From an uncultured Prolixibacteraceae bacterium (GTDB lineage: Bacteria > Bacteroidota > Bacteroidia > Bacteroidales > Prolixibacteraceae), in NCBI GenBank assembly GCA_903834475.1, contig CAILJH010000122.1:1-38781 (forward strand): DNA of 38,781 nt. Reading direction: 5' to 3'. Shown one piece after another: positions 5,574-24,100 of this stretch (its first letter is position 1; each line of letters starts with the position of its first letter). The notes under the pieces were generated by a model. The model had not been told where the DNA came from. It saw only the letters and a program-made list of their open reading frames with translations, and made no database searches. The translations under genes and the position numbers were made by a program.

Positions 5574-8500
5574 ATGAACAAACGGTTATCACTTTTTCTA
5601 TATGTTCTCCTGTACTCATTGGGCAACGCATGGGCTCAGCAGCTTTATTTCAATCATCTCTCGGTAAACAATGGGTTGTCGCAGGGAGTAAACAACTGCA
5701 TTTTCAAAGATTCAAAAGGATTTGTTTGGATCAGTTCATATGATGGACTCAACCGGTTTGACGGTATGAGTTGCGTCAGTTTTCGTTCTTCGATCAATGA
5801 AACAAGCGGTTTAAAAGGAACTCTTTTCTTAAATATCCTGGAAGATCAAAATTCAAATTTGTGGTTCGGAAGTAATGCGGGCCTGAATTTTTACAACCGA
5901 CAACTTGATGTATTTCAAAACTTCAGAATCAAAGACCGCAGTAATGACGAGCAGTTTTATTCCCCTTTCTATATTGATGACGCCAATAACATCTGGCTTC
6001 AGTCGGTTTCTGATATTATCGTGTTTAATCCTGCCAGCAAAACATTTAAATTTCTCAAACATTTTCCTTTGCCTGGAAATTTAATTGTAAAACCATTGCC
6101 TGAAAAGCTCTATCAGCCTTTGCAAAAAATCTTTGCTGTCAAAAATAACTTACCCGTATTGTGGCAGGGAGAATTTATTGGTGAAAAGGCCCTATGGGAA
6201 TCTATACCTTTGACTATTCCGGCAAAACAAATCACCTCGTTACTGCCAGTTACAGACAAAAAAATCTGGTTAGGTACCGAAAATGGTGTTTACCATGTAC
6301 AAATGAATCAAAAGAAAGATTGCATTTGCCAACTTGCAGACAAGGAGATAAAAAGTGTTTCATCGATGCACCTCGATCAGAAAGGAACACTCTGGATTGG
6401 AACATTAAAGCAGGGTTTGTTCAGTTTAGATACTTTGGCACGAAAAATAAAAAATCAGTATATAAACTCAGTGTATAGCGGTTATTCCCTTGCCGGAAAC
6501 CAGATTAAATACATTACTTCGGATGAAAAGGGAGAGTTGTGGGTATCGGTCTGGGGAAAAGGAGTGGATTATACCAGTCTCAAAAGGTTCCGGTTTAATC
6601 AACACATAACCAAAGAGGAAGCAATTCTGGCCGGAACTGACAATTTTATCCGATCTATCATCCAGGTGAAAAATGAATTTTGGTGCGGTACACAAGCGAG
6701 TGGTATTTTAATTTTGGACGAAAACAAAAAGATAAAAAAGTCCATTCATGATGGGATACCCCAGTCGATTGAACATTTATTTTTAGATCAGGACAATCGT
6801 GTATGGGCATCAACTTTTGAAGGTTTGTTTGTGATTGATCCGATAACGAAAAAAATCATCAAACTTCCGGTGAATAATGCCGGATACGGTTCTACCTCCA
6901 ATCAGTACAACTTTATCAGCCGTTTGCCCAATGGCTCCATGCTTGCTTCAACGAACTCAGGACTGTTCATTATCAAAAAAAATAATGGCAATTACCAATT
7001 CAGCGCAATAAAAGGGATAGAAAATGCGGAAGATGTGTATTTGACTACCTACTGCGATCAGTTGAATCATTTATATATTTCAAGGGCATTCAAAGGATTC
7101 TCCGTTTATAATCTTTCCGGAAATTCATTGAATCTGATCCGGGATCTGCCGATGGAAGCAACCATCAAATGCTTCAGCGAATCGGCCGACAGCACAATCT
7201 GGATCGGCAGCACAATTGGTCTGATCAGATTCAATAAATACAAAGTTCAGATGGAGCAATTGATTACCACCAAACAAGGTCTGAGTAATCAATACATCTA
7301 CAGTATCCTGAAAGACGAAGATCACTTGTGGCTGAGCACAAACGCTGGCATCAACCGGTTGGATCTCCGCGATAAAACAATTAAAATATTTTCGGCTGGC
7401 GATGGGCAGCAAAGCAATGAATTCAATACGTATTCCTATTGTAAAACCGCCAAAGGAGAAATTCTTTTCGGGGGAGTGAACGGACTGAATTCTTTTTTTC
7501 CGGCCGACTTTAATGACAATTCATATCCTCCGCAGCTTATTCTTACGGGTTTGCAAATTAACGATACAATTTTTAAAACACCTTTCAATTTAACTGATAT
7601 AAAAGAACTTCAACTTGAATATCACCAGAATACACTTGGGTTGCAGTTTACGGTAATTCAGTATGCCAATGCTCCTGCCAATACTCTGAGCTACATGCTT
7701 CAAGGTTATGATAAAACATGGGTTAACGCAGGCAATAAAACAAAGCTAAGGTATTCCAGAATTCCCCCAGGTCGTTATATGCTCAAAGTAAAAGCTTTTA
7801 ATGCTGACGGGGTCGAATCTGAAAAGATATATTCTTTACCCATAACTATTCATTTTCCCTGGTGGCGAAGTTTGTGGTTTGAGTTATTGGCAACACTTAT
7901 GTTTTTTGGCCTGATCCATTTTATATCAAGAAGTTATGTCAGGAGAAGACTCGAAAAGCAAAGGGAACTTCTGGAGCGGAAACAGGCCGTTGAAAAAGAA
8001 CGCAACCGCATTAGCCGCGATATGCATGATGACCTTGGAAGTGGACTTACAATGATTGCTATTCTTAGTGAAGTTGCAAAAAAAAGATTGTCTGAACCTG
8101 ATGAAGCCAAGGATTTGCTTGATAAAATCGCTGTTTCTTCCAGAGAACTGGTTGATAACCTTCAGGATATCATCTGGTTGCTCAATCCAAAAAACGACAC
8201 AACTGAAAGCCTTTCGTCATACATCAGGGAATATGGCCTGAAATATTTTGAACTACTTCCTGTGCAAGTTAATTTTAACTATCCTGAAGATTTTTCCTCT
8301 ACCCGTTTGGGTGAAGAACAACGCCGCAATATCTTTTTATCGGTGAAGGAAAGCATGAATAACATAGCTAAGCACGCCGAGTGCAATAACGTGATAGTTT
8401 CCATCCATGAAACATCAAGTGAATTCAAGATAAGTATTGTTGATGATGGAAAAGGTTTTGACATGAATTCGGTTCGGATATTTGCCAATGGACTTGATAA

Positions 8501-8594
8501 TATACAAAACCGGATTGAGCAGGCCGGTGGAAAATATTTTATTACTTCTGATCCGGGAAAGGGAACGATGACCGAAATTATATTTTATACTTAA
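5574..8594 (+). CDS. Two-component sensor histidine kinase with periplasmic propeller and Y_Y_Y domain
   Basis: This 1006-residue inner-membrane kinase has a large sensing domain. A signal sequence occupies about residues 1-21 (cleavage near AWA|Q). Residues about 22-670 are many two-component-regulator propeller repeats (for example DSKGFVWISSYDGLNRFD, WFGSNAGLNFY, LWLSTNAGINRLD). A Y_Y_Y domain follows at about 679-762 and one membrane helix at about 763-790. The cytoplasmic part is a HisKA_3 dimerisation domain with RISRDMHDDLGSGL (phospho-acceptor His818) and a HATPase_c domain with the N box NNIAKHA, DDGKGFD and GLDNIQNRIEQAGG. Unlike hybrid HTCS proteins it has no receiver or DNA-binding domain; those are on the regulator gene 73 bases downstream. 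The ligand is unknown. In Bacteroidota such propeller sensors often respond to glycans or surface signals. Confidence 0.93.
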   Translation: MNKRLSLFLYVLLYSLGNAWAQQLYFNHLSVNNGLSQGVNNCIFKDSKGFVWISSYDGLNRFDGMSCVSFRSSINETSGLKGTLFLNILEDQNSNLWFGSNAGLNFYNRQLDVFQNFRIKDRSNDEQFYSPFYIDDANNIWLQSVSDIIVFNPASKTFKFLKHFPLPGNLIVKPLPEKLYQPLQKIFAVKNNLPVLWQGEFIGEKALWESIPLTIPAKQITSLLPVTDKKIWLGTENGVYHVQMNQKKDCICQLADKEIKSVSSMHLDQKGTLWIGTLKQGLFSLDTLARKIKNQYINSVYSGYSLAGNQIKYITSDEKGELWVSVWGKGVDYTSLKRFRFNQHITKEEAILAGTDNFIRSIIQVKNEFWCGTQASGILILDENKKIKKSIHDGIPQSIEHLFLDQDNRVWASTFEGLFVIDPITKKIIKLPVNNAGYGSTSNQYNFISRLPNGSMLASTNSGLFIIKKNNGNYQFSAIKGIENAEDVYLTTYCDQLNHLYISRAFKGFSVYNLSGNSLNLIRDLPMEATIKCFSESADSTIWIGSTIGLIRFNKYKVQMEQLITTKQGLSNQYIYSILKDEDHLWLSTNAGINRLDLRDKTIKIFSAGDGQQSNEFNTYSYCKTAKGEILFGGVNGLNSFFPADFNDNSYPPQLILTGLQINDTIFKTPFNLTDIKELQLEYHQNTLGLQFTVIQYANAPANTLSYMLQGYDKTWVNAGNKTKLRYSRIPPGRYMLKVKAFNADGVESEKIYSLPITIHFPWWRSLWFELLATLMFFGLIHFISRSYVRRRLEKQRELLERKQAVEKERNRISRDMHDDLGSGLTMIAILSEVAKKRLSEPDEAKDLLDKIAVSSRELVDNLQDIIWLLNPKNDTTESLSSYIREYGLKYFELLPVQVNFNYPEDFSSTRLGEEQRRNIFLSVKESMNNIAKHAECNNVIVSIHETSSEFKISIVDDGKGFDMNSVRIFANGLDNIQNRIEQAGGKYFITSDPGKGTMTEIIFYT

Positions 8595-8667: not shown

Positions 8668-9288
8668 ATGATTAAGGTAGTAATTATAGAAGATATCAAG
8701 GAAATAAGGGAAGGCCTGCAAATGCTGATTGATGGCAGCGATGGATTCGTTTGTGCCCAAACCTTTGGAAACGGCGAAGAAGCGCTGGAAAAACTTCCTG
8801 CTATTTGCCCGGATGTTGCATTAATGGACATCAACCTACCTGGGATCAATGGTATCGAAGTTGTTCGGGCGCTTAAGTCACAAGGCTGTAAAACACAATT
8901 CATTATGAGCACTGTTTACGAAGATGATGAATCAATTTTCGAATCACTCAAAGCAGGTGCCTGTGGATATTTATTAAAAAAAACACCCCCAACAAAAATT
9001 CTGGATTCAATTACCGAAGTCTACCACGGTGGATCCCCAATGAGCGGACAAATTGCACGGAAAGTGATCGCCTCCTTTCAGCAAAAAGATTCGATTGATG
9101 AATCTGAAATCCTCACTCAGCGCGAAAAAGAAATTCTTAAATCCTTGTCAAAAGGCCTGCGTTATAAAGAAATTGCCTCCGAATTCAATATTGGAATGGA
9201 GACTGTGCGTTCGCATGCACGAAATATCTACGAAAAACTCCAGGTGCAAAGCCGCACCGAGGCCATCAATAAAGTAATGGGCCGATAA
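8668..9288 (+). CDS. NarL/LuxR-family response regulator, partner of the upstream kinase
   Basis: This 206-residue response regulator is predicted to be phosphorylated by the kinase encoded directly upstream. The N-terminal receiver (about 1-120) has the acidic pair Glu8-Asp9, phospho-acceptor Asp54 in LMDINLPGINGIE, a Ser81/Thr82 switch position and Lys104 in YLLKK. The C-terminal LuxR-type helix-turn-helix (about 143-206) reads LTQREKEILKSLSKG, then KEIASEFNIGMETVRSHARN. The architecture and length are standard. The start ATG gives MIKVVIIEDIKEIREG, the normal receiver start. The gene sits 185 bases upstream of the giant secreted-protein cluster on the same strand, which makes that cluster the first candidate target; this is inference from position only. 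Confidence 0.95.
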   Translation: MIKVVIIEDIKEIREGLQMLIDGSDGFVCAQTFGNGEEALEKLPAICPDVALMDINLPGINGIEVVRALKSQGCKTQFIMSTVYEDDESIFESLKAGACGYLLKKTPPTKILDSITEVYHGGSPMSGQIARKVIASFQQKDSIDESEILTQREKEILKSLSKGLRYKEIASEFNIGMETVRSHARNIYEKLQVQSRTEAINKVMGR

Positions 9289-9473: not shown

Positions 9474-12400
9474 ATGAAAAAATTTATCCTTTTAAGCTTG
9501 TGTGCATTTCAATTGGCCATTGGATCGTTTGCACAAACCAACATCAGTACCAGTTTCGCAGTAAATACAACACTGACGTTAGCGAACAGCCCTTACGTGA
9601 TAACCAATTCGATCAATATTAACGATGGAGTTACCGTTACCATTGAAAAAGGGGTCGAAGTCAGGTTCAATTCGGGCGTCTATTTGCAGGCATTCGGAAC
9701 ACTGAATGCCAAGGGCGTTAATTTCACAGCCAACACTACCAAAACAAAAGGTTTCTGGGATGGAATTTATGTTTCGTATGAATATTCTGCAAGCATTGGG
9801 AGCGTAACTCTGGACAGTTGCAACGTTGAGTTCGCCAGCAATTTATACGCCCGTCACGGTCAGCTCACCCTGAAAAAAACTACCCTGAATAATTTTAGCG
9901 GGCATGGAGTTCAGGTCTCTAATCTGGGAACGCTAAACGTCACCAACTCGGTCATTAAAAATGTCAACTACCCGATTTATATCTACGGTCCGGGGAAAAT
10001 TGCAAGTGGAGGGAATAACCAGTTTACAGGCAATGCCAATGACTATGTCTATATGGCTTTTAACAATATTCCGGGCGTTTTTGACATGCCTAATCTGGGT
10101 ATTCCTTATTATTGTAATTATTTGCTGGTTACCGAAACCGGAACCCTGAATATTTCTCCGGGAGCCCAGCTTAAATTCATGAATTGCGAATTTACGATCA
10201 GTGGAAAAATTAAAGCCCCGGGAACCGCATTAAATCCGATCATTTTCGATATGCATCCGGGCGCTTCCTATTGGCTGGGAATAAACATAACTGCCAATGC
10301 CATTGATACCGCCTGTATTTTTAAGAACTGTGTTTTCAAGAACGCTAAGTATGATTATGAGCCTTACGTTGCTATGGAAATTAACTCTGCTTCGCCAACA
10401 TTCGAAAATTGCAAGTTTACTTCAAATGCCCGGAACCTGATTGTTACAGGATTAAGCAAACCAACGTTTACCAATTGTAATTTTGAAGGTTCTACACTTC
10501 AGTACGGTGAGTGTTTTAACGTCAGTGTTGCAATGGACGCCAGTGTAGTTTTCACCAGTGATTCGATCAAATTCAACACAAAGGAAATCAGGGCTTTAAA
10601 AATACCGGCATCTTCGGTAATTGATGATGCCCAACTAAAAAAACAATCCTTCAAAAATCTTAATAACATAAGCTATTGCCTTTATGGAAACACAACGGTT
10701 CTCGATACGGCCACCTTGGTAATCGATCCGGGAGTGGTTATTAAATGCCGCGATAACTCTTCAATGATTACAGCAAACGGAACTTTAACTGGAATTGGAA
10801 CTGACCTGGAACCTATCATATTTACCAGCATCGCTGATGATACTTATGGAAATCCACTGGATTCGCAAAACGATGGGAATGCCGTTCCGGGAAATAGCAG
10901 CTCTGGCCGGATTGCCATTTATGGTAAAAAAACATCCAAAATTGAAAATTGGAAAATAAACTTTGGCGGCTATAACTCCGACAATTGGTCCGTTTATGTT
11001 ACAAACGGGAACATCGTAAGTAAATGTGAAATCAAAAACTCATACAGGGGAATATACTTTAGTGACAATGCCCAGCTTTTAAATAACTCCTTCCTGAATA
11101 TCAACTACTATCCATTAGCCCGGTTTGTTAATCAGGGAAGTCCGGTCATGTTGGGAAATACCATCTCGAATGTTGGAAATGTTGGGATTCTGATCGCAGG
11201 CTTTGGAACCGATTCGCCAACACTTAAACCGATGGATTTTGCCGGATTTACGAACGTAGCATACATTGTTGAAAATCTGATAACCATCCCTGCGTCGAAT
11301 GTGATTACTATCGATCCGGGAGTAGTAGTAAAATTTCAGGATTATTATGGAGGATTTCTTGTAAACGGAGCAATAAAAGCTGTTGGAAAAGCAAATAATA
11401 AGATCATCTTCACTTCTCTAAAAGACGATTCTGCAGGAGGTGACACCAATAATAATGGAACTGCTACAGTACCTGCTTCAGGCAATTGGTACGGAATTAA
11501 TTACACAGGAACCGCAAGCGATACCGATAATATTCTTAAAAATTGTGAGTTAAGGTATTCCGGTTCCACCTATTACATCAGTTATCCAGATGATTACTTT
11601 AAGAAAAGTGCAATACGAATTACCGATTGCCACGTGGCGATCGACTCAGTCAAAGTGAACTTTACCAGTAACTGCGCATTGGGTATTTTCGGCAATGCAA
11701 ATCCGGTAATTACAAATAGCGAGTTTTATAATTTAGGTAATGCCCCTGTTTACATGGACATGTTTTCACAACCAACCTTTACAGGAAACAAAATTGCCAA
11801 TTTACCAAGAGTTGGATTGCTTATACGAGGTCAGGACATTAGTGGAACCGTTCCTTCCCGCAGTTTTGCAGGTTACGATAACATAACTTACATTGTAGAA
11901 GAGGGAATGACCATTACCGGTCAGCTGACAATTCCTGCCGGAACAACCTTCAAAGGGCCTGGAATATGGTACATTCACGGAAAAATAAGCGTTCAGGGAA
12001 CAGCAGACAAACCAGTAGTATTCACAACGCAGGAGGACGATGCCTATGGCATCCCAAGTGACCTGCAGCAAAACGGGGCAAGCGGTTTGAATAATTCCGG
12101 AAGCGTTTTTGTTTTCTACGACGAATCCAATGATCTGAGTACCATCGATCATACGATATTCAGGTACTCGCCCACAATCCCAATCCAGCTTACCAATGCA
12201 TCACCTAAAATATTAAATACAACTTTCGAAAACCTTCCTTTTTCAGGTATTCAACTTTCCGGCTCGAGTGCACCATCTATTAACAATTGTACGTTCAACA
12301 ACATTTCCTTTCCATTCACAACCTCTTTGATCACTTATCCGGCTGAAACAACCAACAATGTGATTTCAGGAACAACTGGAAGAGCCATTCGGATTACGGA

Positions 12401-14024
12401 CGAAACTCTCACTTCGGACGTAACACTCGCGAAACATGATTTTGCAGGCAAAACAAATATTCCGTATGTATTTATGAACTATACCGTTGGAACGGGTGCT
12501 AAATTGACAATCAAACCGGGAGTAGTCTGTAAATTCATGCAAAATGGCTTTTTACATATCCAAAATGGCTTGATTGCCAAGGGAGGAAGTACAACCGACA
12601 GCACTATTGTTTTCACCGCCGACCGCGACGACTTTTACGGGGGTGATACTTATGCTGACGGAGATGCAAACCAACCAACCAATAACTGGTGGAAAGGCAT
12701 CTATTTTTACAACGAATCACTTGATGAAAATTGTTCGCTCGAAAATTGCATACTAAAAGATGCATCTGATTACTACTATTATCCTTATTACGCTCCATAC
12801 GATCAATACAGAACCGGAGCAGTAACCGTTGATAATGCTTCACCCACACTCAAGAATTGCCTTTTTGAAAGTAATTACTACGGAATTATTTCCCGAAATA
12901 CTTCGTTGCCTAAAATTACCAACTGCGACTTTGTCGGAACGGATCCAACCTACGGATTTGGCGTATACAATCAAACCTCAACAAACACGGTTACCGCAAT
13001 AAATTGCTGGTGGAACAGCAATACCGGGCCAAAACATTCTTCGAATCCGGGTGGTTTAGGCGAACGTGTATCTGACTATGTAACATTCATTCCATGGGCA
13101 ACCCAATTAGCCAAACCGGTTTTAGGTGATGTAAGCATGAATGGTGAAGTGAAACCATACGATGCTTCACTGGTTTTGCAGTACGCTGCGAGCAATATCA
13201 CACTGTCTGCTAAACAGCTGACTGTCGCCGATGTGAGTGGAAACGGAATCATTTCTTCATACGATGCTTCTCTGATTTTGCAGTATAGTGTTGGCCTGAT
13301 CAGCATGTTCGACCAATTGGGCGTGAAATCGGCTTCGATTAACGATTTGGCTACCATTTCTTTTCCTGATCTGATTAGCGAACCATCCAAAAAGACCTTT
13401 GAAATTCCACTCACCGTTTCAACAGCACAGGGAATCAAAGCGATGGACATGAAGTTTTCTATCAATCCTGAACATGTCAAATTCCTTCGCATCAATAAAG
13501 ATAAATTGCCGGCAGGCCTTAGCATCGAAGCCGGGTTTAATGCTCAGAAAGGCGAAATTGTCCTTTCCATGGCTTCAGCGTATGATTTGAATCTGATCAG
13601 TCAACCCATGATTCTTGAATTCGAATTTGTAGACTCTGCCATAACCGAATCGCAGTTTAACCTGACTTCAGCCATGGCAAACGACGATTTCCTGATGGAC
13701 ATCGCTGCTCCGGCAACCATAAGCAGCAAAACGACCGTTACCGGACTGAACGCTCAGTCGCAGCTTTCAGCGCCAACGGTTTATACCGATCAGGATGGAA
13801 TCCATACCCGGTTTGAACTTTCGAAAAGCAATCAGAATCTGTCGTTTCAGGTAGCTGATTTATTAGGCCGGACAGTTTATCAAACGACAGTTAAAAATCT
13901 CAGTTCCGGAAGGCAATATTTTGACCTGAATTATACTGATTTCGAAAATCACACCAAAGGAATTTATATCCTGAACTTGCATACTGATGACTTCAGTTAT
14001 TCCAAAAAGCTACTGCTAAAGTAA
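9474..14024 (+). CDS. T9SS-secreted beta-helix protein with dockerin and cohesin-like domains
   Basis: This is a 1516-residue exported protein. The signal peptide covers about residues 1-20 (SFA|Q). Residues about 25-1210 form at least six right-handed beta-helix blocks. Most open with a phrase like TIDPGVVVKF; several go on to an Asp-rich loop such as DDSAGGDTNNNG, and the series ends with the classic CWWNSNTGP and FIPWATQ. A type I dockerin-like domain lies at about 1218-1276 with two calcium loops, DVSMNGEVKPYD (Asp1219-Asp1230) and DVSGNGIISSYD (Asp1253-Asp1264). A cohesin-like domain follows at about 1283-1418, starting LATISFPDL. Residues about 1430-1516 are a T9SS C-terminal sorting domain (DLLGRTVYQT, GIYILNLHTDD, KKLLLK). 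It is the first of four giant same-strand genes. No catalytic residues of pectinases or lyases are evident, so a structural or binding role is more likely; enzymatic activity of the helix is not excluded. Confidence 0.88.
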   Translation: MKKFILLSLCAFQLAIGSFAQTNISTSFAVNTTLTLANSPYVITNSININDGVTVTIEKGVEVRFNSGVYLQAFGTLNAKGVNFTANTTKTKGFWDGIYVSYEYSASIGSVTLDSCNVEFASNLYARHGQLTLKKTTLNNFSGHGVQVSNLGTLNVTNSVIKNVNYPIYIYGPGKIASGGNNQFTGNANDYVYMAFNNIPGVFDMPNLGIPYYCNYLLVTETGTLNISPGAQLKFMNCEFTISGKIKAPGTALNPIIFDMHPGASYWLGINITANAIDTACIFKNCVFKNAKYDYEPYVAMEINSASPTFENCKFTSNARNLIVTGLSKPTFTNCNFEGSTLQYGECFNVSVAMDASVVFTSDSIKFNTKEIRALKIPASSVIDDAQLKKQSFKNLNNISYCLYGNTTVLDTATLVIDPGVVIKCRDNSSMITANGTLTGIGTDLEPIIFTSIADDTYGNPLDSQNDGNAVPGNSSSGRIAIYGKKTSKIENWKINFGGYNSDNWSVYVTNGNIVSKCEIKNSYRGIYFSDNAQLLNNSFLNINYYPLARFVNQGSPVMLGNTISNVGNVGILIAGFGTDSPTLKPMDFAGFTNVAYIVENLITIPASNVITIDPGVVVKFQDYYGGFLVNGAIKAVGKANNKIIFTSLKDDSAGGDTNNNGTATVPASGNWYGINYTGTASDTDNILKNCELRYSGSTYYISYPDDYFKKSAIRITDCHVAIDSVKVNFTSNCALGIFGNANPVITNSEFYNLGNAPVYMDMFSQPTFTGNKIANLPRVGLLIRGQDISGTVPSRSFAGYDNITYIVEEGMTITGQLTIPAGTTFKGPGIWYIHGKISVQGTADKPVVFTTQEDDAYGIPSDLQQNGASGLNNSGSVFVFYDESNDLSTIDHTIFRYSPTIPIQLTNASPKILNTTFENLPFSGIQLSGSSAPSINNCTFNNISFPFTTSLITYPAETTNNVISGTTGRAIRITDETLTSDVTLAKHDFAGKTNIPYVFMNYTVGTGAKLTIKPGVVCKFMQNGFLHIQNGLIAKGGSTTDSTIVFTADRDDFYGGDTYADGDANQPTNNWWKGIYFYNESLDENCSLENCILKDASDYYYYPYYAPYDQYRTGAVTVDNASPTLKNCLFESNYYGIISRNTSLPKITNCDFVGTDPTYGFGVYNQTSTNTVTAINCWWNSNTGPKHSSNPGGLGERVSDYVTFIPWATQLAKPVLGDVSMNGEVKPYDASLVLQYAASNITLSAKQLTVADVSGNGIISSYDASLILQYSVGLISMFDQLGVKSASINDLATISFPDLISEPSKKTFEIPLTVSTAQGIKAMDMKFSINPEHVKFLRINKDKLPAGLSIEAGFNAQKGEIVLSMASAYDLNLISQPMILEFEFVDSAITESQFNLTSAMANDDFLMDIAAPATISSKTTVTGLNAQSQLSAPTVYTDQDGIHTRFELSKSNQNLSFQVADLLGRTVYQTTVKNLSSGRQYFDLNYTDFENHTKGIYILNLHTDDFSYSKKLLLK
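13125..13301 (+). other. Type I dockerin-like domain (two calcium-loop repeats)
   Basis: Residues 1218-1276 of the beta-helix protein. Each half has the pattern D-x-S-x-N-G-x-(V/I)-x-x-Y-D followed by ASL-x-LQY, so positions 1, 3, 5 and 12 of an EF-hand-like loop are filled. The halves are separated by the usual linker of about 20 residues. Loop positions 10-11, which set partner choice in clostridial dockerins, are Pro-Tyr and Ser-Tyr here. The near-identical halves would allow two binding orientations, as in known dockerins. Confidence 0.85.
13320..13727 (+). other. Cohesin-like domain next to the dockerin
   Basis: Residues about 1283-1418. The stretch shows cohesin-type features: a parallel-strand opening (TISFPDL, then FEIPLTVSTAQGIKAMDMKF), a middle block with VKFLRINKDKLPAGLS, a GEIVLSMASA strand and a final LEFEFVD strand. 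It is weaker than the three copies in the next gene but has the same length and order of elements. Confidence 0.6.
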
Positions 14025-14137
14025 GCTGTCATTTTAGATGAAACCGCATTCGTGCTTAGGGTTGAAACCAAGAAAATCAAACACAGGCACTGGTGCATTA
14101 CTGGAAAAACGCCAGACACTAAAATAAATTTTTACAG

Positions 14138-17100
14138 ATGAATAAACTGATCAGATATATATTTTCCTCCTGCATTTTGACCTGGTGCTGTATGCTGCTC
14201 GTCCCTGGCGCAGCAATGGCTCAATCGAACGTGGGATTCAGTATTGAAGGGACAACGATCCTGGAAAAAAGCACATTTACAATTGCAGTTAAAGCGGATA
14301 CGCTTTTAACGGGAAAAGGAATTTATGCCTTCCGCTTTGGTTTGTCGTATAATGCCGACTACCTTGAATTTCAGGGGATCGATTCTGTTGCATCAATCAT
14401 GAAAGACTGGGGAATTCCAACTTTAAGCAACCGGACAAAAGGCACCATACTGGTTGCCGGGGCAGGTTCTTCAGCACTTTCAGGAAAAGGGAAATTGTTT
14501 TACCTGAAATTTAAAGCGCTGATTGGGGGAGGAACCTACATTCAGAATATTTCAGGAGTAAGTTTTCTTAACGAAGGATCACCTGCAATGACAATGAATT
14601 ATGCCTATATTCAGGCTAATTCACGTTCCTATCCTGACATTTATCCTGACGATATCCAACTATATGTGGGAGATGAGGCCCAATTGTATGTGAACGGAGG
14701 TACCGCCCCGTACATTTACAATGTTGCAGATACTGCTGTCGCTGTGATTAGCAGCGCGACCAAAATTAAAGCAAAAGGTCCGGGCTACACCAAAGCAATT
14801 GTAACGGATAAGGATGGTTATGTATCGACCATGACCGGAAATATTGACGTGCGTGCGGTCAAGATGAGCATCATGCATAGTACGGCCTGGCCAAAAGACA
14901 CTTTCTATTTGCCGGTAAAAATTGAAATCGCACCCGGAACGAAAGTTTACTCCGGATATTTCGAACTCTCTTTTAACGGGAACATCGAGGGAATTAAGTC
15001 AAGTGCAAAAACCGGAGATTTTGATATTTCCATACAAAATAATGCGGTTTCCAATCTGGTTAGGGTTTCGTTTGCTTCTACCACCGGAATTACCGGAAGC
15101 GGAATTTTTTGCTACCTGGGATTCAAGGCTGTCAATAGCGGAAATCATTACTTTACGCTTCAGAACATGCAGTTCAACGAGTCTCTGAGAGCTTTTTCAA
15201 CCAATGATTTCGTTGAAGTGTATTATTTGCCAACCTTAAATATTTCGCCAAACAGCGGAACGCTGATGTGGGGTGAAACACAAAAAATAACCGTGACAAA
15301 CGGAGCACCGCCAATGACGTATAAAGTTTCTGACACGAAACTGGCTTCGGTCGACATTCAGGGAAACCTGAAAGGTTTATCAGGCGGAAAAGTACAGGTC
15401 ACAGCAACCGACTCGCACGGAGCGACACAAACCAGCAGCAATTTTCTCATTTACGACAACCAGTTCTCCATCACCAATTCCGACGGAGTTCTTGATAAAA
15501 TTTGCCGGGTTCCGTTATCCACCTCACAACTTCCATCCGGAAAATCGATTTTCGATTTCGACGGCACGATTTCATTTCAGGGAACGGATCTTGATTTTGT
15601 AGGAATCGATCCGGTTAACTCCGGAATGTTAACTGATTTTGCTCAGACCGGAAATTCGGTGCACATTGTTGGTGCCACCAGTACCGGAATACCTTCAGGA
15701 ATAGTGTGCTACCTGAAATTTAACCTGAAAAATACAATGGCCATCGGGCAGCAGACCACGATTACCCTGAACTCCATGTCGGCCAATGAGTCAACGCTGT
15801 ACTCAACTCTTTTAAATGGAAATATTACGCGCGTGGCACAATTGAGTTACCGGCCAATCGCTATGGCTGGATTAAACAAGAGCGTGGCCGAGGGAGAAAC
15901 AGTTCAGCTCGATGGATCACAATCATACGACAACGATGGAAATCCGCTCACCTTCTCGTGGAGGGCACCTAAAGGAATTCACCTGAACGATAGCACCCTG
16001 AAAATGCCAACATTTATAGCCCCTGAAGTGAAAGTGAATACCAATTACACCTTTACGCTGGTTGTAAACGACGGTACATCCGACTCCGATCCTTCAACCA
16101 TTACTGTTAATGTTCTGCAAATTAACAAACGGCCGGTAGCCAATGCCGGACCAGATAAAAATTATAATGAAGGAAGTTCCGTTTCATTGGACGGCAGTCT
16201 CTCATTCGATCCCGATCAGGATGTGATCTCCTACAAATGGACCTCGTTGGATGGAATTATCCTGTTTGATCCGCTCAGTGTATCGCCTTCATTTATTGCC
16301 CCTCAGGTCAATTCCAACAAGGTGTACCGATTTAAACTTGAAGTAAATGATGGCGTAATTGGTTCACTTCCGGATACTGTAAAAATTACTGATGTGAACC
16401 TGAATAAAAAGCCGGTGGCTTTTGCGGGTGGTGACCAAACCGTCAACGAAGGTGTTTTGGTTCAACTCGACGGATCCTTATCATCGGATGGCGATGGAGA
16501 ACCATTAACTTTTAAATGGGTTGTTCCGGCCAATGTTCATCTTTCGTCGCCGACAGTGAGTAAACCAACTTTTACGGCACCACTGGTTCATCGCGATTCG
16601 GTTCTGGTTCTTTCGCTGGTTGTCAACGACGGTCACATCAATTCGGATACCGACAAAGTATCGGTTACAGTTAAAAACCTGAACATATTGAGTTCTGAAG
16701 CTCAGATTATAAAGGCATCGGGCACAGGTATTGATTCATCGAAAGTAGATCAGGTTTTATCGCAGGTATTCCTTTACATTCCATACGGTGCTGATCCCCG
16801 GACACTGGCGCCAACTTTCCAGATTTCTCCCAAAGCTACTATTAACCCGGCTGGAGGATCAATCCGGAACTTCACTTCACCAGTCAGTTATACGGTGACT
16901 TCGGAAGATGTAACAGTGACCAAAACTTATTCAGTCAAAGTATTTACACCCACCGTAACTCTGAAAAGAACTTTGGCCGCCGGATGGAACTGGATTTCCT
17001 TAACTACAATTCCGGCAGATTTAAATGTCGGACCTGTTTTGAGTTGCCTTTCAATGGCCAGTCTGGACTATGTCAAGTCAGCAACAGCATCGGCAACCTA

Positions 17101-18124
17101 TTATGCGCCTTCCGGCTGGTTCGGCGATTTGATCAGTTTGCCGCAATACGAAATGCTGATGCTTAAAAAAGCCACCACGCAGATTTTCACTTTGTCAGGA
17201 AAAGAAATTAATCCGGCTTTGACAACTATACCTGTTACGACAGGCTGGAACCGGATCGGATATATCCTGAAAGGCAACGCAGCAATTGGCGGGGCTTTCG
17301 ATCAGACTTCGCTGCCAACAGGTGATCTTTTGCTGAAAAGCAAAGAAGCTTCGTCGGTATTCTATCCTTTATCGGGATGGACCGGCGACCTCGACTCACT
17401 CCGCGTTCTGACCGGATACATGATGAAAACCGTTTCGAATTCCGATCTGAAATATCAGTCAGGCAGTGCAAAACTAAAATCTGCTCAGCAATCACTTTTC
17501 AGCCGGAACGAATTATATAAAAACTATGAGATTAATCCGCCGGCATACGAAAATTCGGCCAGCCTGATTGGAGAACTGGTAAATCAGAACGGTGAGAATT
17601 TAATTCATGAGGGTGACTTGCTGATCGCTTATTCGCAAAACGCGCCAAGAGGTGTTACCGAAGCCCGCTTTGTTCCGGATTTAAACCGCTATGTATTCCT
17701 GTTAACGATGTTTTCGAATTCGAATCAGGAAAAGCTGAGTTTTAAAGTCAAAACACTTTCTGATGGACTGGAGAAGACGATCACTGACAAAGTGGTTTTC
17801 AGTGCCGACGAAGTATTCGGACAGGCCATGAATCCATACCAGCTTCACCTGGACAGTTCAACCGGAATATCCGCAGCCGGAACCGAAGGATCAATAACTG
17901 TATTTCCAAATCCGGTTAATGACGAACTTCAGATCCGGTCTGATGAGAAAATCCTTTCGGCCAGATTGTCCGGATTATCCGGAAATTGCCTGATTACTAT
18001 TTCAAATACGTCGGAATATACTTTGCGTTTAAGCACCAAAAATCTGAGTTCAGGAATATACCTCCTGAAAGTTGAAACATCCCGTGGCACATTCATACAG
18101 AAACTAATTAAATCGGCCAATTAG
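14138..18124 (+). CDS. T9SS-secreted scaffoldin-like protein with three cohesin-like and three PKD domains
   Basis: This is a 1328-residue exported protein with a signal peptide at 1-28 (AMA|Q). Domains in order: cohesin-like 1 (about 30-160, with FGLSYNADYLEFQGID and KLFYLKFKA), an Ig-like/BIG2-type domain (about 165-243), cohesin-like 2 (about 244-362), a second Ig-like domain (about 364-440), cohesin-like 3 (about 441-570) and three PKD-type domains of about 93 residues (about 570-847, with RPVANAGPD and VQLDGS). Next come a DUF5018-like domain (about 848-940), a GWNWIS double module (about 945-1110), a RGVTEARF module (about 1120-1241) and a T9SS sorting domain (about 1245-1328, VFPNPVNDELQI). 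Cohesins bind dockerins, and the preceding gene encodes one, so this may be its surface scaffold. There are 113 bases upstream and 42 downstream, so it is probably in the same operon. No catalytic domain is visible. Confidence 0.88.
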   Translation: MNKLIRYIFSSCILTWCCMLLVPGAAMAQSNVGFSIEGTTILEKSTFTIAVKADTLLTGKGIYAFRFGLSYNADYLEFQGIDSVASIMKDWGIPTLSNRTKGTILVAGAGSSALSGKGKLFYLKFKALIGGGTYIQNISGVSFLNEGSPAMTMNYAYIQANSRSYPDIYPDDIQLYVGDEAQLYVNGGTAPYIYNVADTAVAVISSATKIKAKGPGYTKAIVTDKDGYVSTMTGNIDVRAVKMSIMHSTAWPKDTFYLPVKIEIAPGTKVYSGYFELSFNGNIEGIKSSAKTGDFDISIQNNAVSNLVRVSFASTTGITGSGIFCYLGFKAVNSGNHYFTLQNMQFNESLRAFSTNDFVEVYYLPTLNISPNSGTLMWGETQKITVTNGAPPMTYKVSDTKLASVDIQGNLKGLSGGKVQVTATDSHGATQTSSNFLIYDNQFSITNSDGVLDKICRVPLSTSQLPSGKSIFDFDGTISFQGTDLDFVGIDPVNSGMLTDFAQTGNSVHIVGATSTGIPSGIVCYLKFNLKNTMAIGQQTTITLNSMSANESTLYSTLLNGNITRVAQLSYRPIAMAGLNKSVAEGETVQLDGSQSYDNDGNPLTFSWRAPKGIHLNDSTLKMPTFIAPEVKVNTNYTFTLVVNDGTSDSDPSTITVNVLQINKRPVANAGPDKNYNEGSSVSLDGSLSFDPDQDVISYKWTSLDGIILFDPLSVSPSFIAPQVNSNKVYRFKLEVNDGVIGSLPDTVKITDVNLNKKPVAFAGGDQTVNEGVLVQLDGSLSSDGDGEPLTFKWVVPANVHLSSPTVSKPTFTAPLVHRDSVLVLSLVVNDGHINSDTDKVSVTVKNLNILSSEAQIIKASGTGIDSSKVDQVLSQVFLYIPYGADPRTLAPTFQISPKATINPAGGSIRNFTSPVSYTVTSEDVTVTKTYSVKVFTPTVTLKRTLAAGWNWISLTTIPADLNVGPVLSCLSMASLDYVKSATASATYYAPSGWFGDLISLPQYEMLMLKKATTQIFTLSGKEINPALTTIPVTTGWNRIGYILKGNAAIGGAFDQTSLPTGDLLLKSKEASSVFYPLSGWTGDLDSLRVLTGYMMKTVSNSDLKYQSGSAKLKSAQQSLFSRNELYKNYEINPPAYENSASLIGELVNQNGENLIHEGDLLIAYSQNAPRGVTEARFVPDLNRYVFLLTMFSNSNQEKLSFKVKTLSDGLEKTITDKVVFSADEVFGQAMNPYQLHLDSSTGISAAGTEGSITVFPNPVNDELQIRSDEKILSARLSGLSGNCLITISNTSEYTLRLSTKNLSSGIYLLKVETSRGTFIQKLIKSAN
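14225..14617 (+). other. Cohesin-like domain 1 of the scaffoldin-like protein
   Basis: Residues about 30-160 at the mature N-terminus. The order GIYAFRFGLSYNADYLEF, TKGTILVAGAG, LSGKGKLFYLKFKA follows the strand pattern of type I cohesins (GxxxxxFxxxYDPxxLEF, then a xVxFAG strand, then GxLxxIxFK). This is the clearest of the three copies. Confidence 0.75.
14867..15223 (+). other. Cohesin-like domain 2
   Basis: Residues about 244-362. It contains DTFYLPVKIEIAPGTKVYSG, then YFELSFNGNIEGIKS, then LVRVSFASTTGITGSGIFCY and LGFKAVNSGNHYF. This is the same strand order as copy 1, slightly shorter, without the LEF element. Confidence 0.6.
15458..15847 (+). other. Cohesin-like domain 3
   Basis: Residues about 441-570. 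Elements are CRVPLSTSQLPSGKSIFDFD, GTDLDFVGIDPVNSGML, VHIVGATSTGIPSGIVCYLK and FNLKN. It resembles copy 1 in the DLDFVGID element and the VHIVGA strand. It is followed directly by the first PKD domain. Confidence 0.65.
16690..18124 (+). repeat. C-terminal cassette, copy 1 (DUF5018-like, GWNWIS double module, RGVTEARF module, T9SS domain)
   Basis: The last about 480 residues of the scaffoldin-like protein match, in order and spacing, the last about 480 residues of the next gene (cassette 2 at 27010-28444). Phrases such as GWNRIGYILKGNAAIGGAF and EARFVP are identical or nearly so, and the DNA is visibly alike. This is one duplicated 3' end shared by two otherwise different proteins. Confidence 0.85.
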
Positions 18125-18166: not shown

Positions 18167-21100
18167 ATGAAAAATTTCATACCTAAAAATAGTCAACTAC
18201 CTTCCTCCGGAATTCAGGACGAATTCAGAAGATGGAAATTGAATCTCGGCATCATCCGGACGGCAGTACTGGCATTGTTACTTTGGTTGCCAATTGCTGC
18301 CAGCGCAGCCTTTTCGCTGCCTGCCATACCAAGCAATGGCAGTCTGGCCAAACGGTTTGAACTGAGTACGGAATTGGTTTTCAGGGTAAAAATCGGCGAA
18401 ACGTATTTACCCAGCGGAGCCCTGATCGCATCCATCAACGGCGAAATACGCGGCGCACAAACCGCTTCGGTAAATTTTCCTGCTACCGGAATTAACGTTT
18501 ATAAGATTCTGGTTTTCAACGATAAATCCAGTGGTGATTCAATCAGCTTCAAGTATTACGACATTTTCAGCGAGAAAATATACGACATCAAACAGAAAAT
18601 TGAGTTTATTCCCAATCTGATTCCCGACTATTCCAATCCGGCAATCCTTACTGCATATTGTAAGCCAATTACAATTGTTACCGGACTGATTCCCGAAAAT
18701 GCAAAAGAAAACCAGAACTCTACTTTGGATTTGTTCTGGCAACCTTCGGCCAATACCTCCTACTACAATCTTTTCGTTTGGGAAGACGGTACAACGATGC
18801 CAGTGACACCCACGAATACCAATATTTCCGGTACAACTTTCCGACTGTACAATTTAAAATACGGGCAACTGTACCGCTGGAAAATCGGATCGGTTAACGA
18901 TTGTTCTTCGGTTGAGAGTGCCGTGCAAACCTTTAAAGTCAGGCAATTACCCGACCTGACCGTTAACCTGGTTACGGCTCCTGCAAACATCGAATCGGCT
19001 AATAATTTTACGATTAATTTTAAAATAAAAAACGCTGGGGGTGGCAATACTGCCGGTGCTCAATGGTGGGATGCCATTTATGCATCGACCGATCAGACCA
19101 TCAGCAACGACGACAGATTACTGACAACCAAAACAAATCTCAAACAGCTCGAAGCCGACAGTACATACAGTCAGTCGGTTTCTGTTTCCTTTCCAATTGA
19201 CGTCACCGGAGATTTTTATTTTCTGGTAAAGACTGATATTTACAATTCGGTCGTTGAACTTTCAGAAGATAATAATTTAGGAAAGACTGCTGTTACAACC
19301 CATGTTGCACAAAAATCGCTTCCTGACATTCTGGTTAAAGACATTCAGTTTGGAAGCACAACCGTTAATCCAGGTGATTCACTGACTGTCAGCTGGAAAG
19401 TTCAGAACATTGCCGGAGTGCCAGCCATTGGTGGCTGGATCGAAAAGATTTCGCTGATTCCGGTTTCAGGATTAAAACTCACGATTGACCCAAGTTTCGA
19501 ATACGACCTGGATCTGGCCGCCGGAGCCACATTGAACCGGACAAAAAAAATTAAACTCCCCGATCTGCTTAAGTTCTCGGGTGATGCAAATGTTGAAGTT
19601 GAGTTGATTCCGCTCCCTGCATTGCAGGAATACCCGGCCAGCAAAGCCAACAACAAATCAACATCAGCCAACCGGCTTACTGTTGGAAATTTGCTCAAAT
19701 TGGATATCCAGACCGCTTCGGCACTTGAAAATACAGCATCACCGATTCGGTGCATTATTACCCGCAGCGGCGATTATTCGGCTGATCTGGTAGTCTCTTT
19801 GTCGGCATCACTTGCCGGGCAGGTAACTATTCCGCCAACTGTCACCATTCCGGCCAACCAGTCTTCAGTTGTATTTAACCTCAGTACCATCAACAATCTA
19901 ATCATCGACGGCCCAAGAAATGTAGACATTTCGGCCAGTGCAACTGATTATACCAATTCAACGAAAACAATCACCATTCTCGATGATGAAATTCCCGGAC
20001 TGAAGGCCCAACTGAGCAAAAGCTCTGCCACCGAAGGAGAAACGATCACTCTGACCGTTACCCGAGATCTGGTTACCAGTTCGCCTTTACCGGTAAATAT
20101 ATCAACCAACAAATCTTCGCAGTGGACTTTCTCATCAGGTCTCATAATTCCGGCAAACCAGGCTTCAGCCGATATAACGGTGAGCATTACCGACGATAAC
20201 ATTCCGGAATTAACCAGCGATGCAACAATCTACGCCAGTTCTGCCGGATTGACTACAGGCCAGGTCACAGCAAGTATTATTGACAACGATATTCCTGAAG
20301 TCAGTTTTCAGATTCTGACTGATACCATTTCTGAATCAGCCGGAATTTATGCTACATGGGGAGTCGTCAAGCGGGTAAAAGGAAGCGACATCATTACCGT
20401 GAATTTAACGGCCAACCTGAGTGACCAGCTGTTCTTTCCGGCCAGCGTTGTACTTCCGAAAGGAGTTTTGGAGCAGAAGTTCAATATCGGAGTGGTTGAC
20501 AATGCGATTGTGGATGGTTACCGACGAGTGACTCTGACTGGTTCTGTGTTCATTTCATCGTGCAATTGTCGGACAACCGCGCAAAACGGCGGAGTGGTGA
20601 ATGCAGATTTGGTCATTGCCGACAATGACGGACCTTCTTTATCGGTTTCGGTCGACCCGATTTCACTTCCGGAAGGAAAACTGAACGCCGGGACTCTGAC
20701 TATCACACGAAATACTCCAACCGCTTTGGCTCTGGATGTAAACATTTCGTATAACGACACTTCTCAGGTTAAAATTCAGCCAACGGCTACTATACTGGCC
20801 GGACAACGGTCTGTTCAGGTCCCAATAAACACTAAAAATGATCACGTCCTGGTCGGAACCCAAATGGCATCCATTCAGGCCAGTGCACCAACTTTCACCA
20901 CAGGTTTCGGTTATGTTTTTGTTACCGACCAAAACAAACCTGATCTTCAAATCACCGATATTGCATTAAATGTAAACACTGCAGCAACGAACGACGGGAT
21001 TGAAATTACCGGCTCGGCCTTTAATGGCGGGTTCGCTACCGCACCTTCCGGAGTTGTCATTAATTTTTACAGTTCGAACGACAAAACTCTTGATGCCAGC

Positions 21101-24100
21101 GATATCCTTTTGGGAGATTTAACTCTTCCATCACCAATCCTTCAGGGAGCTGTGGCTAATTTTATGAAAACGGTTAATGCTCCGGGTCAAACCGGGAATT
21201 ACTATATTCTGGCAAAAATCAATCCGACCGAAACGCTTTCTGAACTGGTTTATTTCAACAATGTTTCGGATGCCGTCGCCTTGACGATTACCCCGGAATA
21301 CAATGCAACAGTAATTGCCGATAATAATCTGTACCAGCCAAACACCACGATTTCACTTCATGGGTCGGCCGTCAATAACAAAAGCGAAAAAGTTCCGAAC
21401 TCCGATGTGGATGTGTACATTTTAAATAATGGAACACGGAGAGAATTGAAAGCAAAAACAAACAGCAGTGGCGATTATACCATTGATTTTGTTCCAATTC
21501 CCAATGAATCTGGTCATTATTCAATTGGTGCCTGTTTTCCCAAACAGAACCTGAGTGCTGAACAGGACAAATTCGATATTCCAGGATTACTGAAGGAATC
21601 TACTTCGAATATCATTTGGGACATGAAACAGGGACAGACTATAAGCGGGAAAATCGCTATTAAAAACACCAGCGAAGCACCGTTAAATAAACTCGTCATT
21701 ACACCGGATAAACTTCCGTTGGGCTGTGAACTCAAATTTGATACCATTGCCGTTCTTTCAGGAAACCAGAGCAAAGAATTTAGTTTTACTCTGAAGGCAC
21801 TTGAAATAACCAGTGGAAAGGATTATGAAAAAATAAATTTCCAGGTCAAATCAAGCGAAGGAATCACCTTAGATTTCCCGGCTTTCTACTATTGTCAGGC
21901 ACTTCAGGCGCAGTTGAAATCCGATCCGGTAAGTATCAATACCACCATGACCAAAGGAAAATCAAGACTTTATGAGCTTCACATATACAATAACGGAGCC
22001 GGCCAATCAGGAACTGTAACCATTAATTTACCGAATGTAAGCTGGATGACTCTCGTGAGCCCTGCAACCCTTACCAATATTGCCCCGAAGGACACCGCCA
22101 CGGTTATTATCAACCTGACACCGAATTCAGATACACCGCTCAATACACCAATTTCAGGAAACATAGGTGTAAATTGCGTGAATGGCAACGGAACTTCGGT
22201 TCCATATCGCATCGAGGCGGTATCCGAAGAAACCGGCGGATTGAAAGTTGATGTCATTGATGAATACACCTATTTCACCGATGCCAAACCACACCTGAAA
22301 AATGCCCATGTGGTGGTCCGTCATCCTTTCTCAGGCGCAATTCTGGCCGATGGGTTTACTGGTGATGATGGAATTTTCTCTGTGGATAAACTTCCGGAAG
22401 GCTCTTACAAAATGAATGTGGAAGCCGATAAACATGAAGGATTCCAAACCACCCTGATTATTGATCCGGGACGGGTGAACGAACAAAGTGTTTTCCTGAG
22501 TTTCCAGGCCATTACTTACACCTGGGAAGTTGTACCAACTCAGATTCAGGACAGTTATGAGGTTCAGTTAGTCATGAAATTTGAGACCAATGTTCCGGCT
22601 CCGGTAGTGATCATGGAGATGCCAACCGATATGCCGCAACTCTACAACGACCAGACATTTCCGTTTGTGGTTACCCTGACCAATAAAGGATTGATCACGG
22701 CACAGGATGTGCAACTTAATTTACCTCAGAACGATCCGGAATATGAATTTGTGACCAATTTTACTAAAATGAATCTTTTGGCACAACAGGCTATTCAGGT
22801 TCCGGTGGTCATGAGATTAAGATCTTCAACCAAATCAGCTACGATTGCACAATCAACAACTTCAGGCGGTCCTTGTACCGACTATGCCTTCACGATTTAC
22901 GGTTTTGAATGTGGTGCAGACAAACAGTGGCATTCGACTTCGCATGGAATTACATTCTCTGGCAGAGTTTGTCTTGGAAACGGGAATGGTCTGATTGGCG
23001 TTGGAGGTTGGGGCGGACTTGGCGGTGATCCTTCAAGAGGCGGCACCGGAACTCCGTATTACGATCCGAGCAACAATATACCCTACGTTGAAGCTCCTAC
23101 CATTGGATGCGACAACTGCCTTATAGATTTGGGACTTGCTCTTGGCGCCTGTATTCCCGGTCCTGTTGGAGCGGCATTTAATACAGTTAGTTGTATTAAA
23201 ACATTTGCAGGATATTCCGGATTCAATTTCGAGTTTGTTGTTGATTCTTATATATGTCTTGCAGGTTATTCGGCTGCTGGCTGCCCGATTGGACTTTTAG
23301 GTGCACTTAAATCGTGTATTAAAGATCCACCGATTTTTGTAAAAAGTGCATCGCTGATTACCGGTGTACAGGGGACGAATTCAGTGTCACCAATTATACA
23401 GCAAGCCTGGAATGATATGGCCTATTTTGAATACAAAAAAGAAGCACAGATCAGTTGGATGAGCGAAATGATGGGAGGATTGGATTGGCAAACGAAACAA
23501 AGTTTTTCCGATTTTATTACACAATTGGGTTCTATTCTCGGTACCAATAAAATGATCGATGCGCAGAATGCTGCACTGATCAAGGATAAGATGGTAGGTT
23601 CGGATATTACCGGTGATGAAATAGATGCTTTTATAACTCGCTGGAACAGTTCAATGACTGCTTTTGCATTAGGCATATTTTCCCCGACACCAGAGCATCC
23701 GGGAATTATAGATAATTCGATTTTGGCTGGTTACGTGCAAAAATCTGATTCGGCCCAGCATTATGCGGTTTCAAAAGGATATGGTTCTGTAGGAGAATTG
23801 TATAATGCGTCTTTGAAAATCATAAAGGATCAAATTGAAGCCGGACGAAACTCAGTTTGTGCTTCGGTCACCATTAACATTACCCAAAAAGTAGTCATGA
23901 CCCGTGAAGCTTTTGAAGGCACCTTGACCATATTCAATGGCAACAAGACCACGGACATGAAGGAAATCAAGCTCAACCTCGAAATAAAAGACGAATTCGG
24001 AGTTTTGAGCAACGATCTGTTCCAGATTGATACCAAAGCACTCAGTATTCTGACAGGAGTTGATGGCACAGGAAGTCTTGGTCCGGATCAAAAAGGAAGT

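What the first reader, a model, noticed from the sequence alone, without database searches (positions are those of the whole stretch)
9474..18124. Cohesin-dockerin pair on T9SS-secreted proteins without enzymes
Adjacent genes encode a dockerin-bearing beta-helix protein and a protein with three cohesin-like domains, both with signal peptides and T9SS sorting domains. Seen: both calcium loops of the dockerin and the cohesin strand order. Known: cohesin-dockerin pairs build cellulosomes in clostridia and also occur singly elsewhere. Inferred: a calcium-dependent, non-cellulosomal surface assembly in a Bacteroidota cell, with the helix protein as client and the PKD protein as anchor.
Basis: partly seen in the sequence, partly recalled or inferred. 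Interest (0 to 1): 0.75.

Follow-up and report, generated by a model that had tools for sequence, protein, structure and literature searches.

The report
Two-gene cohesin–dockerin surface assembly
Two neighbouring genes in a Bacteroidota bacterium encode a long, apparently non-enzymatic exported protein and its three-socket holder, carrying the plug-and-socket domains that build cellulose-digesting machines elsewhere; the pair stays side by side in distant relatives, so it is probably a way of mounting proteins on the cell surface.

Summary
ORF A (9474-14024) is a beta-helix protein with a type I dockerin above Pfam's cut-off. ORF B (14138-18124) has three cohesins separated by Ig-like spacers. 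Both have T9SS sorting tails and, by eye, signal peptides. The pair is a conserved two-gene unit. In a genome scan keyed on A upstream of its dockerin, 50 of 50 homologues carry the dockerin, and a cohesin gene follows in 49 of 49 loci whose contig continues. Of 395 genomes spread over the phylum, all 14 with A also have B. The 8 genomes with B alone have a divergent A-like dockerin gene upstream: next to B in 7, one small cohesin gene between in 1. The dockerin is the most conserved domain of either protein. The pair is patchy: 7 of 22 other genus members have it. Best reading: A docks by calcium-dependent binding onto up to three cohesins of B at the surface, a non-cellulosomal and probably adhesive assembly. 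Binding was not tested. It is a new variant of a known kind; ten open-access searches listed no paper on this pair.

The parts
9474..14024 (+). Protein A: T9SS-type beta-helix / dockerin / cohesin protein, 1516 aa
9537..13070 (+). A: right-handed beta-helix region, about 1180 aa, no enzyme domain listed
   Evidence: PF13229, 6 stretches; alignment A5
13122..13286 (+). A: type I dockerin, aa 1217-1271
13353..13718 (+).
13815..14021 (+). A: T9SS C-terminal sorting domain
14138..18124 (+). Protein B: three-cohesin T9SS protein, 1328 aa
14234..14608 (+). B: cohesin 1, aa 33-157
14627..14854 (+). B: Ig-like spacer between cohesins 1 and 2
14861..15211 (+). B: cohesin 2, aa 242-358
15236..15436 (+). 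B: Big_2 spacer between cohesins 2 and 3, aa 367-433
15461..15823 (+). B: cohesin 3, aa 442-562
15851..16687 (+). B: three PKD-type domains
17900..18121 (+). B: T9SS C-terminal sorting domain
18167..28444 (+). Protein C: giant CARDB/PKD T9SS protein (3425 aa) after the pair; shares its C-terminal 573 aa with B (66% identity)
28447..38781 (+). Protein D: second giant, 76% identical to C over about 2950 aa, runs off the window
5574..8594 (+). Two-component propeller histidine kinase upstream of the pair; possible regulator
8668..9288 (+). LuxR-type response regulator (named from recall of its sequence) directly upstream of A; possible regulator

Best explanation
Genes A and B are a conserved two-gene, non-cellulosomal cohesin-dockerin assembly. 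Both proteins are exported by Sec and then T9SS (sorting tails and SprA shown; signal peptides read by eye; export inferred). Outside the cell the calcium-stabilised dockerin of A plugs into the cohesins of B (inferred), so one B, probably tethered by its T9SS tail, can hold up to three copies of the long A beta-helix. With no enzyme domain listed in A, B, C or D, the product is most likely a structural or adhesive surface array rather than a degradative machine (inferred). A's own cohesin may add A-to-A contacts or a link to another dockerin protein (speculative).
For: Domains. Synteny: a genome-contig scan whose two search peptides lie upstream of the dockerin, in or at the edge of the beta-helix, gave 50 loci; dockerin in 50 of 50; a cohesin gene directly downstream on the same strand in 49 of 49 loci whose contig continues, gaps -11 to 189 bp; of 43 complete B genes 40 have three cohesins, 1 two, and 2 one (in those two a three-cohesin gene is the next one). 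Co-occurrence: of 395 phylum genomes A in 14, B in 22, all 14 A genomes have B (Fisher p 1.6e-20, too small because genomes are related). In 11 of 11 further three-cohesin B loci, including those of the 8 B-only genomes, an A-like dockerin gene lies upstream on the same strand: adjacent in 10, with a one-cohesin gene between in L167. Among 34 near-full dockerin hits of 101 order-level relatives, G063 left out, 20 are followed directly by a same-strand cohesin gene. The dockerin has mean pairwise identity 0.66 (47 rows) against 0.25-0.44 for the other domains (28-47 rows). The window genome's only dockerins over the cut-off (2) and cohesin genes over it (2) form two A-B pairs (genome 66% complete). 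SprA present.
Against: No binding or calcium data. Loop 2 position 5 of the dockerin is A, T or V in 18 of 47 rows. The cohesin face expected to bind is only slightly more conserved than the other sheet (B cohesins 1-3: 0.40 v 0.34, 0.44 v 0.33, 0.32 v 0.29; A's cohesin 0.30 v 0.26), without a significance test. Covariation of dockerin and B cohesin distances beyond shared ancestry is weak (partial r 0.20-0.28). A has its own cohesin. Both A and B have T9SS tails, so A may not need B for attachment. 8 of 28 relatives with cohesin hits have no dockerin hit at E 0.001. 14 of 34 dockerin hits have no cohesin gene next door. The pair is patchy: found in 7 of 22 other genus members (G001, G003, G009, G010, G012, G015, G021) and 14 of 395 phylum genomes. 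The dockerin and cohesin profiles used for the wide counts were trained partly on this family.
Confidence: 0.74

Rival explanations
1. A polymerises by itself: the dockerin of one A binds the cohesin of the next A, and B's cohesins cap or branch the chain.
For: A cohesin is detected after the dockerin in 46 of 50 A homologues (of the other four, one is cut by the contig end). The modelled fold is sound.
Against: A's cohesin is the least conserved cohesin (0.26). It was not detected in 10 of 11 divergent A-like genes that keep dockerin and three-cohesin partner, though about 240 aa follow their dockerin too, so a diverged cohesin may be there. Its partial correlation with the dockerin is the lowest (0.15).
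Confidence: 0.12
2. The cohesin-like and dockerin domains are structural modules with no mutual binding; gene order merely reflects an old operon.
For: 8 of 28 relatives with cohesin hits have no dockerin hit at E 0.001. Only weak co-variation.
Against: Both dockerin halves keep loop and helix motif better than any other domain. Seven dockerin genes outside the A/B family, three of them also with beta-helix, are directly followed by a cohesin gene.
Confidence: 0.12
3. It is a small cellulosome: B is a scaffoldin for dockerin-bearing enzymes elsewhere in the genome.
For: B has tandem cohesins like a scaffoldin. Genus member G002 has a subtilase with a dockerin, though no cohesin hit.
Against: The only dockerins over the cut-off in the genome are the two A copies (genome 66% complete). 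In genus members rated 99% complete that have the pair (G003, G010, G012, G021) the near-full Pfam dockerin hits are A genes; G012 has one more dockerin by my own profile, on a HYR-repeat protein. No CBM listed in A or B.
Confidence: 0.04

Closest known systems
Non-cellulosomal cohesin/dockerin modules, Archaeoglobus fulgidus pair (2xdh cohesin; Peer 2009 and Voronov-Goldman 2011 seen only as references, otherwise recalled)
   Same: Cohesin- and dockerin-containing proteins outside cellulosome producers; 2xdh is the best cohesin match of A's cohesin. The A. fulgidus pair binds well enough to be used for E. coli surface display (PMC9705933, passages).
   Different: Archaeal; no T9SS, beta-helix or Coh-Ig-Coh-Ig-Coh array that I know of (recall).
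Cellulosome-like complex proposed for Ca. Stygibacter, Cloacimonadota (PMC8542988, passages)
   Same: Dockerin and cohesin proteins with a C-terminal sorting domain; Cloacimonadota records are also among the A-B loci here (L147, L156).
   Different: There the dockerins sit on enzymes (GH18, GH57, S8/S53, C25) and the scaffoldin has 3,755 aa with CBMs; here the client is a beta-helix without enzyme domain and the holder has three cohesins and no CBM listed.
Dockerin/cohesin proteins of ANME archaea (PMC9012536, passages; PMC5244752, passages)
   Same: Non-cellulosomal; proposed cell-surface or cell-cell role.
   Different: Variable sets of modules, some on S-layer and transporter proteins; no conserved two-gene unit in the passages seen.
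Clostridial cellulosome cohesins and dockerins (e.g. 1ohz, 4uyq)
   Same: Homologous cohesin and dockerin domains.
   Different: No enzymes or CBM found here; T9SS tails.

Membership tests
Type I dockerin (PF00404) | Duplicated calcium loop-helix, above Pfam cut-off | tested here: met
   31.6 bits v 22.9; solved dockerins 4uyq_B 1.7e-9, 1ohz_B 2.7e-4
Type I dockerin (PF00404) | Intact calcium ligands in both loops | tested here: inconclusive
   Loop 1 positions 1, 3, 5, 12 invariant 47/47; loop 2 position 5 N/D in 27/47 (N in the window); loop 1 position 9 is mostly Q, K or M
Cohesin (PF00963) | Profile match above cut-off and cohesin fold in B | tested here: met
   55.5 bits v 24.1; PDB cohesins over domains 2 and 3, weakly over domain 1 (the top two chains there match the Ig-like spacers); model pLDDT 92. 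Foldseek on the multi-domain B model ranked long Ig-like chains first, with cohesin chains among the top 50, so for B the sequence evidence is the stronger
Functional cohesin-dockerin pair | Calcium-dependent tight binding | not testable with these tools
   no experiment; complexes could not be co-folded
Cellulosome | Dockerin-bearing plant cell wall enzymes | tested here: not met
   two dockerins over the cut-off in the genome, both A; genome 66% complete
Cellulosome | Carbohydrate-binding module on scaffoldin | tested here: not met
   none named as a CBM family among Pfam matches of A or B up to E 1; B's PKD repeats also match PF21027, named for a cellulose-binding protein's C-terminal domain, which overlaps the PKD matches
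T9SS substrate | Signal peptide plus C-terminal sorting domain, secretion machinery in genome | tested here: met
   TIGR04183 above cut-off in A and B; SprA 2684 bits in the genome; signal peptides read by eye, no predictor run; other T9SS parts not searched
Non-cellulosomal cohesin/dockerin systems | Both modules present without cellulosomal enzymes | tested here: met
   genome incomplete

The most novel reading that the evidence does not exclude
Bacteroidota and neighbouring phyla use cohesin-dockerin pairs as a general clamp for mounting large T9SS-exported, non-enzymatic (adhesin-like) proteins: a dockerin client gene directly followed by its private cohesin holder gene, with the A/B beta-helix pair as one widespread case among several client types (beta-helix, Kelch plus beta-helix, HYR or SprB-repeat, Reelin/laminin-like, possibly Omp28-like).
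Probability: 0.5. Interest if true: 0.78.

Novelty: new variant of a known kind. Interest (0 to 1): 0.6.

Why it matters
The role of cohesin and dockerin domains outside cellulosomes is an open question; one paper says it is not known (PMC5244752, passage). Here the likely partners are handed over by gene order: one client, one holder, kept together across distant relatives without enzymes. That makes partner, stoichiometry and calcium dependence directly testable, and it suggests how very large T9SS proteins may be assembled at the surface. It could also supply new binding pairs for engineering.

Tried and rejected
Cellulosome: rejected, no dockerin enzymes and no CBM found. Ordinary Ig-like domains instead of cohesins: rejected for B and for A's fourth domain on profile and fold evidence; Foldseek on the whole B fragment was not decisive because long Ig-like chains score well. 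Partial dockerin hits of about 22-40 positions in many relatives were left out of counts; I suspect SusC-type calcium motifs, from recall, not tested. Covariation and binding-face conservation gave only weak signals. A conserved kinase-regulator-A-B unit: seen in the window, L168, L172, L173 and L179, not in most other A loci, so left as a lead.

Rows dropped before counts: L119 (contig ends inside A) is out of the 49, and six B genes cut by a contig end (L113, L116, L129, L134, L148, L160) are out of the 43. In one search, 50 of 100 pattern matches were not confirmed as relatives. In one search the 38 hits of G063 and partial hits were left out; of the 14 without a cohesin neighbour, L085 has only 196 bp left on its contig and five hosts show no dockerin with my own profile. 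Among the B hits, L178 (a one-cohesin gene in a genome with two ordinary pairs) has no dockerin neighbour.
Full report
OBSERVATION. Two long + strand ORFs lie 113 bp apart: A, 9474-14024, 1516 aa, and B, 14138-18124, 1328 aa. Pfam finds in A a right-handed beta-helix (1.8e-26) and a type I dockerin (1.9e-7, aa 1217-1271, above cut-off), and in B cohesin (8.9e-15, two stretches), Big_2, PKD-type domains in three stretches and a T9SS tail. NCBIfam's T9SS sorting domain is above its cut-off in both; Pfam's is below its cut-off in A. No enzyme family stands above its cut-off in A, B, or the two giant proteins C and D that follow (D was scanned with Pfam only).

CORRECTION. Pfam alone sees it weakly (E 0.07). 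A profile of 47 A C-termini matches solved cohesins there (2xdh 1.2e-8, 3ul4 1e-6) and solved dockerins before it (4uyq_B 1.7e-9, 1ohz_B 2.7e-4). The AlphaFold2 model of A aa 1200-1516 has pLDDT 82.5, three helices in the dockerin and a beta-sandwich after it. In the Foldseek top 50, the seven matches with rmsd under 5 A are all cohesins (2vo8, 4uyq_A, 4uyp_C, 4dh2_C, 4uyp_A, 2xdh, 5nrm_A; target TM 0.56-0.65); rank 1 by E-value is a peptidase chain at 18.4 A, and many antibody and integrin chains match at 12 A or worse. I could not see whether dockerin and cohesin touch in the model: coordinates are not given.

B. A profile of 42 B fragments (aa 25-575 in the window) matches PDB cohesins over domain 2 (2xdh 3.6e-7) and domain 3 (5nrm 8.6e-6), weakly over domain 1 (2y3n 0.0038, 1tyj 0.0061), and Ig-like chains in between, which take the two top places. 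Pfam itself places the domain 1 and 2 cohesins above the cut-off in the window. The model has pLDDT 92.4. Foldseek with this five-domain model is headed by long Ig-like chains, with cohesin dyads and scaffoldin fragments among the top 50, so for B the sequence evidence is the stronger. Pfam finds three cohesin stretches in B homologues L168, L092 and L148.

OWN GENOME. The window is contig 122 of an assembly of 3.6 Mb, rated 66% complete. It has two dockerins and two cohesin genes over the cut-off, forming two A-B pairs: the window's and one on contig 102 (A 71%, B 74% identical), which is also followed by a C-like giant. SprA of T9SS is present; I searched no other T9SS part. Record titles of loci 65% identical or more name Prolixibacteraceae, Bacteroidales, Bacteroidia, Bacteroidetes or Bacteroidota; one reads Chitinophaga pinensis. 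Titles were not checked against phylogeny.

CONSERVED PAIR. One scan of the genome collection with an alignment of A used two peptide patterns that lie upstream of the dockerin, in or at the edge of the beta-helix, so dockerin and neighbour were not selected for by the patterns; confirmation was by tblastn with the whole of A. Of 100 stretches matching a pattern, 50 encoded a relative. Titles include Prolixibacteraceae, Marinilabiliaceae, Paludibacter, Ignavibacteriales, Chlorobiota and Cloacimonadota. The dockerin is found in 50 of 50, a cohesin after it in 46 of 50 (one of the other four is cut by the contig end). A gene with cohesins follows directly on the same strand in 49 of 49 loci whose contig continues, gaps -11 to 189 bp. 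Of 43 complete B genes 40 have three cohesins, one (L122, fused to C) has two, and two (Cloacimonadota titles) have one and are followed by a three-cohesin gene. These counts use dockerin and cohesin profiles that I built from Pfam-defined hits and iterated, so they include this family.

CO-OCCURRENCE. In 395 genomes drawn evenly over the phylum, the A beta-helix profile hits 14 at E <= 1e-60 and the B profile 22 at E <= 1e-25; all 14 A genomes are among the 22 (Fisher p 1.6e-20; genomes are related, so this p is too small). I then took the further B loci, which cover the eight genomes with B alone. In 11 of 11 three-cohesin loci an A-like gene with a dockerin lies upstream on the same strand, next to B in ten; in L167 a one-cohesin gene lies between. 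The A likeness is by BLAST to A's C-terminal part; Pfam was run on one of them (L168: beta-helix, dockerin, T9SS tail). The one solitary hit, L178, is a one-cohesin gene in a genome with two ordinary pairs. The pair is not universal: 14 of 395 phylum genomes have A by this profile, and 7 of 22 other members of the genus have A genes.

BEYOND THIS FAMILY. Among 101 genomes at genus to order level (own genome counted), 34 near-full dockerin hits lie outside genome G063; 20 are followed directly on the same strand by a cohesin gene (gaps 3-174 bp) and 14 are not. Thirteen of the 20 are A/B pairs; seven are other genes. Pfam of dockerin clients beside cohesin genes: Kelch plus beta-helix (L089, L090, L091), HYR repeats (L110, L079), SprB repeats (L097; below cut-off in L079) with beta-helix in both L079 and L097, Reelin/laminin-like (L107), Omp28-like below cut-off (L102), YDG/MBG repeats (L098). 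The dockerins of L079 and L097, and that of the L098 protein scanned, were found by my own profile only. Some of these beta-helices resemble A's distantly (L089, 27%). Dockerin proteins without a cohesin neighbour include enzymes: a GH31 (L086) and a subtilase (L084). G063 has a subtilase with dockerin beside a one-cohesin gene (L112). 8 of 28 genomes with cohesin hits have no dockerin hit at E 0.001.

CONSTRAINT. Mean pairwise identity per domain: dockerin 0.66, A's cohesin 0.26 and A's sorting tail 0.25 (47 rows); beta-helix 0.44 (28 rows); B cohesins 1-3 0.40, 0.37, 0.30 and the Ig-like spacers 0.43, 0.44 (42 rows). Both dockerin halves mostly keep the motif Y/F-D-A-S-L and the leucine and glutamine after it, which fits a symmetric, two-way binding dockerin (that reading is from recall of clostridial dockerins). 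Loop 2 position 5 is A, T or V in 18 of 47 rows. The face expected to bind (strands 8-3-6-5, recall) is slightly more conserved in all four cohesins, without a significance test. With control distances removed the dockerin tracks B cohesin 1 best and A's cohesin least (partial r 0.28, 0.22, 0.20, 0.15; 42 loci), a weak signal.

MECHANISM. Shown: domain content, T9SS tails, gene order, conservation, no enzyme domain listed. Inferred: export to the surface, calcium-dependent docking of A onto B, up to three A per B, adhesive or structural role. Open: what A's own cohesin binds, and what the beta-helix binds. A C-like giant follows the pair in the genus and in relatives about 45% identical, where the locus is long enough, but is not seen as a full-length neighbour in the more distant pairs, so I take C and D as accessories.

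LITERATURE. Ten searches of the open-access library listed no paper that by title or start of abstract describes this pair; most listed papers were not opened, and for two searches only the first 25 of 47 and 12 of 13 were listed. I saw passages of PMC8542988, PMC9012536, PMC9705933, PMC6394049, PMC12484212 and PMC5244752. Peer 2009, a key review, is not held. Subscription papers are not covered, so absence from print is not established.

VERDICT. It is a new variant of the known non-cellulosomal cohesin-dockerin kind.

Noticed in passing
G063: L100 (6476-13876, 14021-17740), L111, L112: A 2.6 Mb genome of the same order has 38 dockerin hits and, by my own profile, scaffoldin-like genes with 8 and 5 cohesins: looks like a cellulosome-like system in this order.
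   Followed up: partly
window 5574-9288; L168, L172, L173, L179: A propeller histidine kinase and a response regulator (43-47% identical to the window's) sit directly upstream of the pair in the window and in four loci of another family; most other pairs lack them.
   Followed up: partly
L085, L086, L087: Proteins of 1273-1281 aa end in a dockerin-cohesin tandem; no cohesin gene next to L086 and L087 (the contig of L085 ends); L086 is a GH31 enzyme.
   Followed up: partly
window 18167-38781: Two giant neighbouring genes C and D, 76% identical over about 2950 aa, look like a tandem duplication; B shares its C-terminal 573 aa with C.
   Followed up: no
L147 15873-16712, L156 6144-6989, L167 8392-9390: A small one-cohesin gene is inserted between A and B; the L156 one also has a T9SS tail by Pfam.
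   Followed up: partly
L148 1-9755: Two further large proteins with cohesin-dockerin-cohesin order lie directly upstream of an A-B pair whose B also carries a dockerin.
   Followed up: no
L095, L096 (G005, G022): Genus members with Pfam cohesin hits but no dockerin hit at E 0.001; my own profile sees two cohesins in a 484-aa gene of L096 and none in L095; role unclear.
   Followed up: no
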